A stretch of 21,449 nucleotides of DNA from positions 1 through 21,449 of the IMG/VR virus record IMGVR_UViG_3300050821_016070; one strand, written 5' to 3'. Below the pieces are notes generated by a model. That model was not told the origin of the DNA. It saw only the letters and a program-made list of their open reading frames with translations, and did not search any database. A program made the translations under genes and the position numbers. Source of the DNA: a virus. The stretch's first letter is position 1. Every line of letters begins with the position of its first letter. Positions 2 through 19,408 of the stretch are shown one piece after another.

Positions 2-373
2 GACGCCATTAATCGGATAATCCTTGTAGAAGGGCTTCCAGACTTCTTCGCCGTGCTAGCACTATTAATTGATTGGCCGGGAAACGCCAGGCCGATCGCG
101 ATGTTAGGCGCCAGCACTAAACCGGGTGAAGAATGCCGCAACCTTTTTAAAGGAAGGGATATTCTTATTATTCCCCATAATGATGTAGAGGGAACCGCTG
201 CAACGCAGAAATGGGTTGACATGTCATCTGGATTCGGAGCGAGAGTGTTTGTCCAGAAAATACCGGGAGACAACAAGGACATAAACGAGTTTCTTGTCAA
301 TCCCGGTCAGGAAAACCCCCTCGATCTGCTGAAAGGATTAGTCCATGGAAAAGTATACGGAGTACCCTCCTAA
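2..373 (+). CDS. DNA primase, TOPRIM domain (5' partial)
   Basis: The reading frame is open from base 2, so the N-terminal part (zinc finger and most of the catalytic core) lies before the window. The visible part is a TOPRIM domain. It starts with hydrophobic strand RIILVEG, followed by the acidic loop EGLPDFFA (29-52), whose Glu is the family's general acid/base. The metal-binding DxD-type motif follows as IPHNDVEG (170-193). In DnaG-like and phage primases these acidic residues hold the magnesium used to make RNA primers. A possible GTG start at 53 would remove the first TOPRIM motif, so it is not the real start. The gene ends 29 bases inside the next gene, a helicase, which fits a primase-helicase pair working together at the fork. 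The family call is firm; the exact primase subtype cannot be told from the fragment. Confidence 0.85.
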   Translation, partial: DAINRIILVEGLPDFFAVLALLIDWPGNARPIAMLGASTKPGEECRNLFKGRDILIIPHNDVEGTAATQKWVDMSSGFGARVFVQKIPGDNKDINEFLVNPGQENPLDLLKGLVHGKVYGVPS

Positions 374-1484
374 GGAAGAGCCTCCCCCTCCCAGATTCAA
401 GCCAGGAAAGAGCATCGTCTGGTTTTCCAGCAGGCCAATTGATAAGAGTAAAACCATCCTGGGCAATCGCTATCTCTGCCGTGGCGGCGGGATGTGGATC
501 ATCGCTCCTAGCGGCCTGGGAAAATCAACCCTATCAATTCAGGTCGCTATTCTCTGGAGCCTGGGAAAATACGCCTTCGGAATTTCCTCACACGAGATCA
601 GGCGCATCCTGATCATTCAAGCGGAGGACGATGAGGGTGATTGCATTGAGATGAGTGTGATGGTCGATCACCTTGGATTAACGCCTGATGAGAAAAAGAT
701 TGTCGGGGAAAACACCGAGCTGATCCATTGTAACTCTTTGGTCGGCAAGGAGTTCATCGAGGCGCTGAAATTCAAATTGAAAGAGGCGCGGGACGCTGGA
801 CGTCCGTTCGATCTGGTGATCATCAATCCCTACGGCGTTTACCAGGGCAAGGATGTCCAGAGCCCTTCCGATAACACCGAGTTTCTTAATCATTTCCTCA
901 ACCCGGTGTTGACGGAATTCGATGTGGCCGCGGTCCTGATTCATCACACTCCGAAGACCAACTTCATGAATTTTGAGAACCTTAACCCGTGGGATTTCCA
1001 GTATGCCGGAGCAGGCTCGGGCAACATGACCAATTGGGCGCGGTCGATCATGATTATTGTGCCCCAGACCGTGGAGCGCCTTTTCATGTTTGTCGCCGCC
1101 AAACGCGGGCAGCGGATCGACGGATGGGACGGTGCTAGCACCCGTTTCTTCTCTCATTCGGACGGCAAACCGATCCTTTGGCTGGACGCCAGCGAGGAAC
1201 AGAAGACGGAATCCAAGAAGGCCAAGCAGAAAAAAGGGAATTACTTCGACCGCCCGAAAGGTCAGGAGATTTTCGAGAAATGTTTGAGTCCAATCGATTG
1301 GTTGCACGAGATGGAAGTCTTTGAAAAGGCTCAGGAAATCTGGCCAAAAATCAGTGAAAGATACGTCCATGACCAACTGAAAACCGGGGTCTCAATAGGC
1401 ACTCTGGAAGAAGCAAAATCTCCGAATTCCAAGACTCGACCTCTTCCTATTTACCGCAAAAACGGAGTCCATGACGAAGACTGA
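345..1484 (+). CDS. RepA-like hexameric replicative helicase / AAA_25 ATPase
   Basis: A 379-residue P-loop ATPase of the RecA/KaiC superfamily, most like RSF1010 RepA-type ring helicases (AAA_25). Visible motifs are Walker A APSGLGKST (residues 54-62), the RepA-type acidic motif IQAEDD (91-96), a Walker B-like strand DLVIINP (156-162) and the sensor segment VLIHHTPK (197-204). It probably unwinds DNA at the phage fork with the primase encoded just upstream. Walker B carries Asn161 where most relatives have Asp; I believe some phage members also read INP, so activity need not be lost. The C-terminal 120 residues are charged and not recognised. The ATG at 345 has AAAGGA seven bases upstream and sits inside the primase gene, suggesting coupled translation. 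A cluster of iteron-like repeats starts two bases after the stop codon. Confidence 0.85.
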   Translation: MEKYTEYPPKEEPPPPRFKPGKSIVWFSSRPIDKSKTILGNRYLCRGGGMWIIAPSGLGKSTLSIQVAILWSLGKYAFGISSHEIRRILIIQAEDDEGDCIEMSVMVDHLGLTPDEKKIVGENTELIHCNSLVGKEFIEALKFKLKEARDAGRPFDLVIINPYGVYQGKDVQSPSDNTEFLNHFLNPVLTEFDVAAVLIHHTPKTNFMNFENLNPWDFQYAGAGSGNMTNWARSIMIIVPQTVERLFMFVAAKRGQRIDGWDGASTRFFSHSDGKPILWLDASEEQKTESKKAKQKKGNYFDRPKGQEIFEKCLSPIDWLHEMEVFEKAQEIWPKISERYVHDQLKTGVSIGTLEEAKSPNSKTRPLPIYRKNGVHDED

Positions 1485-1487
1485 AAA

Positions 1488-1613
1488 GATATTGCAGAAA
1501 GATATTGCAAGGATACTGCAACTTGGTGGGAGATAGATACTGCAAGCGGGGGGAGTGTAAACACTCTATCCCCCCGCCGCAATATCTCCTCCTTCTTGCA
1601 GGATTGCAGTATC
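1488..1613. repeat. Iteron-like repeats GATAYTGCA (4 direct, 2 inverted)
   Basis: The nine-base word GATA(T/C)TGCA occurs on the + strand at 1488-1496, 1501-1509, 1512-1520 and 1536-1544. It occurs inverted at 1578-1586 (one mismatch, CGCAATATC) and 1605-1613 (TGCAGTATC). Start-to-start spacings are 13, 11 and 24 bases. Bases around the outer pair (1526-1544 and 1605-1624) extend the symmetry. Repeats like this directly after a replicative helicase gene suggest an iteron-type replication origin; an operator array for the next gene is the alternative. This is the only gene-free stretch in the replication region. Confidence 0.75.
1535..1587. other. Large imperfect palindrome / hairpin at candidate origin
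   Basis: GCGGGGGG (1546-1553) pairs with CCCCCCGC (1570-1577) and AGTG (1554-1557) with CACT (1562-1565), leaving a TAAA loop and a CTAT bulge. The arms extend outward through an iteron (1535-1543) and its inverted copy (1579-1587), giving about 20 pairs over 53 bases. No T-run follows on either strand, so it is not a normal terminator. A cruciform or single-strand initiation site within the candidate origin is the simplest reading. Confidence 0.6.
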
Positions 1614-1632
1614 TATTATCTCACCCCACTTT

Positions 1633-2117: not shown

Positions 2118-2157
2118 AAAAAAACCCTCGACCGAGATAACCAGTCCCGGTCGAGGG
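2118..2157 (-). terminator. Intrinsic terminator of the leftward operon
   Basis: A perfect 10-bp stem, CCCTCGACCG (2125-2134) with CGGTCGAGGG (2148-2157), encloses a 13-base loop. Read on the minus strand the stem is followed directly by seven Ts (2124-2118). It lies about 60 bases past the last minus-strand gene and stops leftward transcription from running into the replication genes. There is no T-run on the plus side. Confidence 0.9.
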
Positions 2158-2219
2158 CGAACAATGCAAGAAATACAAGAACCAAGTAATATGCCTCAAG
2201 TCACATGCTCACACATGCT

Positions 2220-16582: not shown

Positions 16583-17074
16583 ATGGCAGAAATTCCTATC
16601 TCATTAACTGGTGTTCTTTACGATTTGTTGAATCGTACCACCCAACGAGTCATCTTTATCGGAGACGCCTCTCTTACCGGCCTTAGTATTGGCGGGGGTC
16701 CGATGCCTGGGGGGCCAGGGCAACAGCCTCCAACAGGACAGCCTCCTCATCCGGCATTTCCTATTTGGGGACCTCCTGGATCAAACTTTCCGGAAAAGCC
16801 GGGTTATCCGCCATACGTCAGTGGCGGGCCGATTATTCCGCCAGGTGGGCCGATAACTCCGCCTAAGCCAGGAGATGCTACGCCTCCTCCGGATGCACCG
16901 CCAAAACCGACCGAACCGCCTGCACCTACTGGGGCTTGGTATTGGCAAGGGATTTGGCAGATGTGGGTTTGGGTACCAGCCGCGCCACCAACGAACGTGA
17001 ATCCACCGCCGACCGGTGGTGATGTTGGACCGGCTCATCCGATTCAGCCGACCGTGCCGCAACCGAAGAAATAA
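16583..17074 (+). CDS. Proline/glycine-rich virion-associated protein
   Basis: 163 residues. A short N-terminal fold (IPISLTGVLYDLLNRTTQRV, IFIGDASLTGLSI) is followed by about 90 residues of Pro/Gly-rich repeats such as GGPIIPPGGPITPPKPGD. A tryptophan block WYWQGIWQMWVWVPA then stands before another proline tail. Proteins of this layout are common in podovirus structural regions, and I recall the W-W-V-P block from them. Function unknown; a flexible linker or fibrous structural protein is likely. It is followed by AAGGGAG and the next gene eight bases on. Confidence 0.65.
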   Translation: MAEIPISLTGVLYDLLNRTTQRVIFIGDASLTGLSIGGGPMPGGPGQQPPTGQPPHPAFPIWGPPGSNFPEKPGYPPYVSGGPIIPPGGPITPPKPGDATPPPDAPPKPTEPPAPTGAWYWQGIWQMWVWVPAAPPTNVNPPPTGGDVGPAHPIQPTVPQPKK

Positions 17075-17081
17075 GGGAGTG

Positions 17082-18479
17082 ATGCGCGCGTTATTAGTTC
17101 TCTTGATTGGATTAGCCCAGGTAACACTGGGCTTTTCCAAAACTGTCACCGCTGCTAGCGGTAATGCGACCGACGTCCAGTCGGCGATCAATTCTGCCGG
17201 TACCGGCGATACGGTCCAGATCCCGGCTGGCACCTTTAATTGGGCTAATGGCGTTAGCGTCAAGAAACAGATCAAGCTTTACGGGATGGGCGCCTCCACG
17301 GTGATTAACCAGAACGGGAGCAACACTCTGGTTGATCTGACCGCTCAGCCTGGCGGGAGCGTGGAACTGGCCAAGATCCGTTTTACGAGGACGCCTGGCC
17401 AGAACGGAATCTTCGTCGTTGCCAACGGTGGGGGGGTTCCAACGCTGGTTCATGACTGCACTTTTGAGAATGTGCAGTTTGGCTCTAGGTGCATGGAGTG
17501 GCGGACCAATGGTGGGGTGATTTACGATTGCAACTTTGTCTCCAGCGATAAGAGCGACAACAGCGGGATTGCCTTCAAGAACCCTTCCAGCGATTCCGCG
17601 TGGCACGAGGTCGACGTGATGGGAGACAAGGATGCGAACGGGGATAAGAACACCTACCTCGAGGACTGTACTTTCAAAGACTTCTTCCTTCAGGCGCTCG
17701 ACTTCGATGACAACTCCAGAACGGTGATGCGTCACTGCAAGTTCGATAACAGCGCGGTTGCGTCGCACGGGCAGGAGACCAGCGCGGTCGGGGCGCGTCA
17801 GTGGGAGCTGTATGAGTGCGAATTCATTTTCACCAATGGCGGGAATAGTAACCCTGGCAAACAAGAATACCCCTTAAATATGAACCTCTTCCTCTTCATC
17901 AGGGGAGGCGGGCCAGGAGTTTGCTGGAACAACAAAATCCCGGACATCAGCTCGAGCGCTTGGGGGAACAAGCCCGAAGTAAAGTTCAACCTCTACAACA
18001 TTCGCCGCAGAGGCCAGGTGCCCTGTCAAACTAGCTATCCTGCCGCCAGACAAATTGGATTTGGCTCTGACACACAGGGCAGACTGGTATCGAGCCCGGT
18101 CTATTTCTGGGGTAATACTGGAGCTGGGAACTACGCAAATCCAGCCTTGGAAGATTACAATCCAGATGAGTGCGGCAACGGGCTACACACCGCGGATTTT
18201 GTCAAGAAGGGCAGGGATTTCTTCGTCGATACTGAGAAGCCAGGGTACAAACCCTACGCCTATCCGCATCCTTTGAGAGCTGGCGGGAGTGGGCCAACGC
18301 CAACCCCTAATCCAACGCCTACAGCCACTCCTCCGCCACAGCCAACGCCAACACCCACTCCGCCTCCTCAACCAACACCAACGCCAACACCCACTCCTCC
18401 GACCACTGAAACCTATCGTAATTGGTTGGATCTGTTAAGCCGCTGGATTGAAACTCACCCGGCCCAACCCGATCAATGA
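17082..18479 (+). CDS. Secreted parallel beta-helix protein with Pro-Thr tail
   Basis: The ATG at 17082 is chosen: GGGAG precedes it and it starts a signal peptide (MRALLVLLIGLAQVTLGFS). The mature 445 residues begin TVTAASGNATDVQSAINSAG, the entry of pectate-lyase/tailspike beta-helix domains. Repeated turns follow, such as VHDCTFENVQFG, IYDCNFVSS, LEDCTFKDFF, MRHCKFDNS and LYECEFIF. The tail is a low-complexity Pro-Thr linker (about residues 404-443) and a short amphipathic end with RNWLDLLSRWIE. Beta-helix phage proteins usually bind or cut host polysaccharide; active-site residues are not identifiable by eye. A signal peptide is unusual for a virion protein and points to export or host origin. 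Confidence 0.75.
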   Translation: MRALLVLLIGLAQVTLGFSKTVTAASGNATDVQSAINSAGTGDTVQIPAGTFNWANGVSVKKQIKLYGMGASTVINQNGSNTLVDLTAQPGGSVELAKIRFTRTPGQNGIFVVANGGGVPTLVHDCTFENVQFGSRCMEWRTNGGVIYDCNFVSSDKSDNSGIAFKNPSSDSAWHEVDVMGDKDANGDKNTYLEDCTFKDFFLQALDFDDNSRTVMRHCKFDNSAVASHGQETSAVGARQWELYECEFIFTNGGNSNPGKQEYPLNMNLFLFIRGGGPGVCWNNKIPDISSSAWGNKPEVKFNLYNIRRRGQVPCQTSYPAARQIGFGSDTQGRLVSSPVYFWGNTGAGNYANPALEDYNPDECGNGLHTADFVKKGRDFFVDTEKPGYKPYAYPHPLRAGGSGPTPTPNPTPTATPPPQPTPTPTPPPQPTPTPTPTPPTTETYRNWLDLLSRWIETHPAQPDQ

Positions 18480-18706: not shown

Positions 18707-18713
18707 TCAATGA
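18666..18713 (+). CDS. 15-residue micro-ORF, remnant or leader of endolysin
   Basis: The frame encodes MRAVKLNSKVEYLDQ and is nearly identical to the start of the M15-like protein (MRAVKLNSKVEHLED). Its stop overlaps the ATG of the endolysin gene (ATGA at 18710-18713), and its start lies inside the preceding gene. It may be a translational coupler for the endolysin, or the stump left when a GH46-like endolysin replaced an M15-type one. No ribosome site is obvious. Whether it is translated cannot be told from sequence. Confidence 0.5.
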   Translation: MRAVKLNSKVEYLDQ

Positions 18714-19408
18714 GCATTCCCGCTCCATTTGACCCTAAGTACATCGAGTTTATCCGGCGGATTCTGAGCGTTGCGGAAACCGATACCGCCAAGTGGAACC
18801 CGGCAGCGGTCTACGTTTACAACGATGGGGACGATGGGAGACGGCAATGTACCTTGAGCATTGGGTTCACGGCTGACGGCGGGAATCTGAGGAAGGTCCT
18901 GGAACGCTACGTTGAACGGGATGGCAGCTACAGTGATCAGCTTGCGCCGTGGATTGCGCGAATCAAGGCCGGAGATCCAGGTACCGATCCGGATTTTATT
19001 TCGCTCCTAAAAAAAGTGGGCAAAGAAGACCCGCTAATGATGAGCGTTCAGGAGGAGATGTTCGACAAACTGTACCTTGGCCCAGCTTTTGAATGGGCCT
19101 CCAAGTATGGTTTTGGTTTGCCGCTCTCTTATTTAGTGATTGCCGATTCGTTTTTGCACAGCGGTGGCATGCGCGATTCCCTGATGAAGCGTTTCCCAGA
19201 GAAAAAACCGAATGCCGGTGGCGACGAACAAGCTTGGACCCGGGCTTACATCGACACTCGGCGGGAATGGTTGGCCACCCATTCGAATAAGATTTTACGG
19301 AATACGATTTATCGTTGTGACTGTTATCTGCATGAAATGGCTCGCGGCAATTGGTCTTTAGCTCAATCTCCGGTCAACATGCACGGGACGGAGGTTAATT
19401 ACGCATGA
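18710..19408 (+). CDS. Endolysin, GH46 (chitosanase)-like
   Basis: 232 residues. The N-terminus VAETDTAKW (Glu23) and VYVYNDGDDGRRQCTLSIGF (Asp39) fit the Glu and Asp catalytic pair of GH46-type enzymes, spaced as in chitosanases. QEEMFDKLYLGPAFEWASKYG, LPLSYLVIADSFLHSGGM and GGDEQAWTRAYIDTRREWL follow, a pattern I know from phage chitosanase-like endolysins. It would cut the glycan backbone of the cell wall to release progeny. There is no signal peptide, so it needs the holin. The start is coupled by ATGA to the micro-ORF upstream, and its stop overlaps the next small gene. Confidence 0.75.
   Translation: MSIPAPFDPKYIEFIRRILSVAETDTAKWNPAAVYVYNDGDDGRRQCTLSIGFTADGGNLRKVLERYVERDGSYSDQLAPWIARIKAGDPGTDPDFISLLKKVGKEDPLMMSVQEEMFDKLYLGPAFEWASKYGFGLPLSYLVIADSFLHSGGMRDSLMKRFPEKKPNAGGDEQAWTRAYIDTRREWLATHSNKILRNTIYRCDCYLHEMARGNWSLAQSPVNMHGTEVNYA

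What the first reader, a model, noticed from the sequence alone, without database searches (positions are those of the whole stretch)
1486..1625. Iteron-like candidate origin with nested cruciform after the RepA-like helicase
Six copies of GATAYTGCA (four direct, two inverted) and a 53-base imperfect palindrome with an uninterrupted G6/C6 arm fill the 148-base gap right after a RepA-type helicase gene. The outermost repeats are themselves mirrored (1526-1544 and 1605-1624). Iterons with a RepA/primase pair is a plasmid-like replication layout, in contrast to a T7-like linear strategy. No initiator gene is visible, so the binding protein may be the 85-residue gene just after it or lie outside the window.
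Basis: partly seen in the sequence, partly recalled or inferred. Interest (0 to 1): 0.72.

Follow-up and report, generated by a model that had tools for sequence, protein, structure and literature searches.

The report
Phage helicase carrying its own origin
Right after a phage's DNA-unwinding (helicase) gene sits a cluster of short repeats around a hairpin, almost certainly the phage's replication start site; related phages keep the same arrangement but each uses a different repeat, and the tail end of the helicase itself looks like the part that reads it.

Summary
Six GATAYTGCR sites (four direct, two inverted) fill 1488-1613 around a nested hairpin (inner stem 1546-1577, outer stem about 1525-1625). 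No other exact copy occurs in the window (shuffle p about 0.001; fold z = -6.2). Relatives found through the major capsid protein nearly all have such an array directly 3' of the replicative helicase stop codon, but with a different private repeat (GTCCGATA, CAGTCTAC, GTGTCAAA, CGTTTAGTA, GTGCAC and others), usually flanking a palindrome. It is the strongest two-orientation repeat cluster of the record in 12 of 17 cases. Phages 94-95% identical in capsid protein and/or 83-86% in terminase have unrelated helicases and different arrays, so gene and array change together. The window helicase has an RSF1010 RepA-type core plus a C-terminal domain that models as a winged helix (pLDDT 82). Across 40 loci, similarity of this domain predicts iteron similarity after controlling for the ATPase core (p = 0.0016); the reverse does not hold. 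Best reading: a replication origin bound by the winged helix of its own neighbouring helicase. This is the SaPI/PICI and pRN1 logic carried by a RecA-fold helicase in tailed phages.

The parts
2..373 (+). 3' part of a Toprim_2 (primase-like) gene, cut by the record's start
   Evidence: Pfam PF13155 E=9.5e-5; 40-51% identical genes lie directly upstream of the helicase in relatives L219, L259, L203, L313, L319
345..1484 (+). RepA-type (RecA-fold, AAA_25) hexameric helicase gene, 379 aa
   Evidence: PF13481 E=1.4e-12; model matches RSF1010 RepA 1nlf/1olo/1g8y
1230..1481 (+). C-terminal domain of the helicase (residues 296-379), predicted winged helix, inferred iteron-binding domain
   Evidence: AlphaFold2 pLDDT 81.7, H-H-H-E-E; Foldseek matches to PerR/Fur/MarR/PadR DNA-binding domains, TM 0.6-0.7
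1488..1496 (+). iteron 1 GATATTGCA
1501..1509 (+). iteron 2 GATATTGCA
1512..1520 (+). iteron 3 GATACTGCA
1536..1544 (+). iteron 4 GATACTGCA, in the left arm of the outer stem
1578..1586 (-). iteron 5 GATATTGCG (one mismatch), inverted
1605..1613 (-). iteron 6 GATACTGCA, inverted, in the right arm of the outer stem
1525..1625 (.). nested inverted repeat of about 100 bases carrying iterons 4 and 6 in its arms
   Evidence: DNA fold -28 to -32 kcal/mol, z = -6.2 against shuffles; 13/13 arms
1546..1577 (.). inner hairpin GCGGGGGG-A-GTGTAAACAC...CCCCCCGC
   Evidence: similar G/C-armed hairpins at the same place in L201 and L346

Best explanation
The 1486-1625 element is the phage's replication origin, part of a self-contained helicase-origin cassette. 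The RepA-type helicase encoded just upstream carries a C-terminal winged helix that binds the iterons next to its own gene. Binding to the tandem and the mirrored sites gathers helicase subunits around the hairpin, the inverted repeat is melted or extruded, the helicase ring forms there, and the adjacent Toprim primase starts synthesis. Shown here: the array, its recurrence at the same place with private sequences, its joint replacement with the helicase, the helicase fold, a winged-helix model, and a correlation between C-terminal domain and iteron. Inferred: binding, melting, helicase loading, priming and actual origin activity.
For: (1) Array and hairpin far above chance and unique in the record. 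(2) The same anatomy 3' of the helicase in relatives with different repeats; top two-orientation repeat cluster of its record in 12 of 17; 31 of 65 non-redundant AAA_25 helicases have a significant exact-repeat array within 300 bases of the stop at p<=0.01, less than 1 expected. (3) G001, G002 and G034 share 83-86% of terminase (G001 and G002 also 94-95% of MCP) with the window but have a different helicase and a different array; G001 even has a different helicase type (weak DUF5906 match), again followed directly by its own array. (4) RepA fold plus winged-helix model of the window's C terminus; relatives have Pfam-detectable HTH there, e.g. HTH_23 2.5e-7, HTH_5 8.4e-7. (5) Iteron similarity follows C-terminal similarity given the ATPase core (partial r 0.15, p 0.0016) but not the core given the C-terminus (p 0.15); share of pairs with a common core rises from 4% to 78%. 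(6) Precedent: SaPI Rep and SCCmec Cch2 use a C-terminal domain to bind repeats directly downstream of their genes (PMC7581432); the pRN1 origin is a 100-bp stem-loop 3' of a winged-helix replication protein (PMC4234260).
Against: No replication experiment. L006, whose helicase is nearest to the window's, has a palindrome but no clear iterons. About half of the helicase loci fail the strict array test; the window itself scores only p=0.055 there because the Y position splits exact 7-mers. The winged helix of the window is weak by sequence (2.3 bits) and rests on a model. GC skew is inconclusive. In the 40-locus test the iterons of about eight loci were chosen by eye; the stricter 31-locus version gives partial p=0.044. 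TCATTTCA recurs with differing C-terminal domains (L224 group, Bacillus phage BCJA1c).
Confidence: 0.76

Rival explanations
1. Replication origin, but bound by a separate initiator (RepC-like) encoded outside the window, with the RepA helicase loaded by it as in RSF1010.
For: The helicase core matches RSF1010 RepA, and RSF1010 uses a separate RepC for iterons (PMC4234260). The record is a fragment.
Against: The array is tied to the helicase even when neighbouring genes change, and iteron type follows the helicase's own C-terminal domain. The next gene, ORF85, is not conserved.
Confidence: 0.12
2. Packaging (pac) or regulatory site bound by the small terminase.
For: In several relatives (L201, L211, L226, L224, L232, L204) the next gene after the array is terS.
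Against: In the window terS is 4.4 kb away (6018) and in L219 about 9 kb away, while the array stays at the helicase in all 17 records. TerS is conserved across relatives although the arrays differ.
Confidence: 0.04
3. Transcriptional operator array or terminator rather than an origin.
For: Repeats with mirrored copies resemble operators; the helicase winged helix could autoregulate; it lies between two + strand genes.
Against: It lies 3' of the gene. No sigma-70-like promoter and no T-tract terminator is found in the array; no Rfam family. Tandem plus mirrored sites around a palindrome are classical origin anatomy.
Confidence: 0.08

Closest known systems
SaPI / PICI pri-rep-ori and SCCmec Cch2 (PMC7581432, PMC6092414)
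   Same: Origin of short iterons directly 3' of the helicase gene; two iteron sets around a central element; C-terminal DNA-binding domain of the helicase reads the iterons; private iteron sequences per element.
   Different: Their Rep/Cch helicases are DUF927, D5-like or Primase_Cterm families; here a RecA-fold RepA/AAA_25 helicase. Their centre is AT-rich; here it is a G/C-armed palindrome. They are islands or satellites; here tailed phages with their own terminase and capsid.
Crenarchaeal plasmid pRN1 and phage BIP-1 (PMC4234260)
   Same: Stem-loop of about 100 bases a short way 3' of a replication protein with a C-terminal winged helix; stem-loop conserved in structure, not in sequence.
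   Different: pRN1 has an SF3 helicase with an archaeo-eukaryotic primase domain and lacks iterons; here a RecA-fold helicase, Toprim gene and iterons.
RSF1010 RepA/RepB'/RepC-oriV
   Same: RepA-fold hexameric helicase, iterons and hairpins at the origin, separate primase.
   Different: RSF1010 needs a separate iteron binder RepC, and its RepA has no winged helix (own knowledge); no RepC is seen here.
Phage P4 alpha protein and its origin (described in PMC4234260)
   Same: Helicase with a winged-helix domain that binds repeats at the origin; Toprim primase.
   Different: P4 alpha is one fused protein; here primase and helicase are separate genes and the helicase fold differs (own knowledge).
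Lactococcus phage F13 GP46 (PMC8965321)
   Same: RepA-cluster/AAA_25 phage helicase, shown to unwind DNA 5'-3'.
   Different: The passages read mention no winged-helix domain or iterons.

Membership tests
SaPI/PICI-type rep-ori | Iteron array immediately 3' of the initiator-helicase gene | tested here: met
   Array begins 4 bases after the helicase stop
SaPI/PICI-type rep-ori | Two iteron sets flanking an AT-rich region | tested here: not met
   Two sets present, but the centre is a G6/C6 hairpin
SaPI/PICI-type rep-ori | Rep of DUF927 or D5-like helicase family | tested here: not met
   AAA_25/RepA fold
SaPI/PICI-type rep-ori | C-terminal DNA-binding domain of the helicase binds the iterons | tested here: inconclusive
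   Winged-helix model and covariation support it; no binding assay
RepA/AAA_25 hexameric helicases | RecA-type fold most like RSF1010 RepA | tested here: met
   PF13481 1.4e-12; Foldseek 1nlf E 3.5e-8, TMt 0.60-0.64 for RepA chains
RSF1010 replicon | Separate RepC initiator that binds iterons | tested here: inconclusive
   None recognised among the proteins scanned in the window, but the record is a fragment
RSF1010 replicon | About 20-bp tandem iterons | tested here: not met
   Repeats are 9-12 bases, direct and inverted; the 20-bp figure is own knowledge
pRN1-type origin | About 100-base stem-loop 3' of a winged-helix replication protein | tested here: met
   1525-1625, z = -6.2; winged-helix model
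pRN1-type origin | SF3 helicase plus AEP primase in one protein | tested here: not met
   RepA-type helicase; separate Toprim gene
Functional replication origin | Supports autonomous replication with its cognate protein | not testable with these tools
   Needs an experiment

The most novel reading that the evidence does not exclude
RepA/RecA-fold replicative helicases of many tailed phages (environmental contigs, and cultured Streptococcus, Enterococcus, Paenibacillus and Bacillus phages) are self-loading initiator-helicases: a C-terminal winged helix/HTH reads a private iteron-hairpin origin directly 3' of the helicase gene, and helicase and origin are exchanged between phages as one cassette. 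Origin specificity would then be readable from the helicase C-terminus.
Probability: 0.6. Interest if true: 0.74.

Novelty: new variant of a known kind. Interest (0 to 1): 0.62.

Why it matters
Origins of most uncultured tailed phages are unknown. A rule [quoted passage not shown] would locate origins in hundreds of phage genomes from sequence alone. It would also add a RecA-fold helicase class to the self-loading initiator-helicases (so far SF3/AAA+ types such as SaPI Rep, Cch2, pRN1 ORF904 and P4 alpha), and give a large natural set of winged-helix/iteron pairs for learning DNA specificity. Examples in cultured phages make it directly testable.

Tried and rejected
Scanning viral contigs for pairs of GATAYTGCA gave mostly chance or coding repeats: the repeat itself is private to this phage. 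Single-protein search for the helicase in viral contigs found only L006, and nothing confirmed in genomes. ORF85 as the binder: rejected, no relatives. pac site: disfavoured, since the array follows the helicase and not terS. Terminator or known RNA: no support. GC skew as origin evidence: array near an extremum in 8 of 9 but with inconsistent sign and confounded by gene strand. Strict gap-free palindrome score: window hairpin not significant, because its stems have bulges; the fold z-score is. Full-length helicase model: C-terminus unresolved; refolding the domain alone resolved it. Named cultured phages: Serratia phage Serbin and Vibrio phage 82E33.2 show no array.

Full report
What is there. 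The window is an IMG/VR virus record of 21,449 bases, linear, probably a fragment. A Toprim-like gene end (2-373) is followed by a 379-residue AAA_25 helicase (345-1484) and then 148 non-coding bases. This gap holds iterons GATAYTGCA at 1488, 1501, 1512, 1536 (+) and 1605 (-), plus GATATTGCG at 1578 (-). With one mismatch allowed there are 6 sites, against at most 3 in 1000 shuffles, and the gap ranks first of 288 windows. The sequence folds as a nested stem of about 100 bases (1525-1625) with an inner G/C-armed hairpin (1546-1577); z = -6.2. The capsid and terminase matches identify a tailed phage.

Comparative evidence. The capsid protein finds 65 related loci. A profile search started from the helicase finds RepA-like helicases in over a dozen of them. 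An independent detector of clustered 8-mers flags, in most, an array directly after the helicase stop, but made of a different word each time: CGTTTAGTA, CAGTCTAC, GTCCGATA, CTGGAGTA, GGTTCAAAA, TCATTTCA, GTGTCAAA, GTGCAC. Printed regions show the same plan: often two to four tandem direct copies, a palindrome flanked by mirrored copies, then inverted copies. In 12 of 17 records the array is the strongest two-orientation repeat cluster of the whole record. Three more viral scans with helicase subfamilies bring the set to 65 non-redundant helicases; 31 have a significant exact-repeat array within 300 bases of the stop (p<=0.01 each), and 28 of 65 have a hairpin better than every one of 30 shuffles. 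In G008 the helicase crosses the contig ends, whose sequences overlap, and the array again follows the gene.

The cassette moves as a unit. G001, G002 and G034 have 83-86% identical terminase (G001 and G002 also 94-95% identical capsid protein), but their helicases give no tblastn match to the window's (15-16% identity in the alignment for G034 and G002), and each has its own array. In G001 the helicase is of another type (weak DUF5906 match below cut-off), yet the array still sits directly 3' of it. The upstream Toprim gene is 40-51% identical to that of G002 and G034. The 85- and 69-residue genes after the array have no relatives.

Which protein reads the repeats? The window helicase core matches RSF1010 RepA structures among its best hits. 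Its last 84 residues, refolded alone with an alignment from relatives, give a confident three-helix, two-strand domain (pLDDT 81.7) whose matches are winged-helix DNA-binding domains of PerR, Fur, MarR and PadR proteins (TM 0.6-0.7, E about 2e-3). By sequence alone the match to the relatives' C-terminal profile is very weak. Other helicases have clear HTH hits there. Recognition-helix types go with repeat cores: GW[SP]RAT with TGATAC (L255, L256); W[AS][KR]RT with GTGCA (L219, L232, L257, L259); [VM]TRSTFF with TCCGAT (L210, L299); S[AE]AT[VI] or SQAAV with CATTTCA (L319, L224, L320); NKSNV with AGTTGCG (L324, L326). Quantitatively, iteron similarity correlates with C-terminal similarity (Mantel p = 0.0002). 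After removing the ATPase core's effect the C-terminus still predicts the iteron (p = 0.0016, 40 loci; p = 0.044 in the strict 31-locus set), while the core adds little beyond the C-terminus (p = 0.15 and 0.13). Caveat: about eight of the 40 loci had iterons called by eye.

Breadth. The anatomy also occurs in cultured phages whose primase-helicase belongs to this family: Streptococcus phage Javan199, Enterococcus phage EFC-1, Paenibacillus phage Diane and Bacillus phage BCJA1c each have a C-terminal HTH-like stretch and a repeat array directly 3'. Serratia phage Serbin and Vibrio phage 82E33.2 do not show an array. The only genome match is a Verrucomicrobiia MAG contig (L346), a hint about hosts, no more.

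Mechanism. The most likely reading is an origin recognised by the winged helix of the helicase encoded next to it, which then assembles on the hairpin and starts replication with the Toprim primase. The architecture is shown; binding, melting, loading and priming are inferred. Known analogues: SaPI Rep and SCCmec Cch2, with iterons directly downstream read by the helicase C-terminal domain (PMC7581432); PICI origins (PMC6092414); pRN1, a 100-bp stem-loop 3' of a winged-helix replication protein (PMC4234260); P4 alpha. All of these use other helicase types. RSF1010 has the same helicase fold but a separate RepC. A RecA-fold RepA helicase as self-loading initiator was not found described in the papers searched; the main review of phage replication modules (Weigel and Seitz 2006) was not read, so priority is uncertain.

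Verdict. New variant of a known kind.

Noticed in passing
window 18710-19408: Glycosyl hydrolase family 46 (chitosanase) gene in the structural region of the phage (PF01374, E 5.9e-17).
   Followed up: no
window 17016-18479: Pectate-lyase-like beta-helix protein, probably a tail spike.
   Followed up: no
L236 14551-14860 and 15709-15966; L216 18291-18510: 36-nt tandem repeats with alternating GAAACCCA and GAGCGAGC motifs (36-base spacing) in two relatives, within a few kb of the helicase; function unknown.
   Followed up: no
L128 2726-5482: DEAD-type helicase ORF of 918 aa that appears to contain an intein-like insertion (CFRKGTPV...VTHNT).
   Followed up: no
window 2124-2158: Strong terminator-like hairpin with T-run on the minus strand, just beyond the end of the minus-strand gene block.
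   Followed up: no
L265 3022 onward: Long CGGGAAA repeat array downstream of the helicase in a different phage group; near-relative L264 with a very similar C-terminus lacks it at that place.
   Followed up: no
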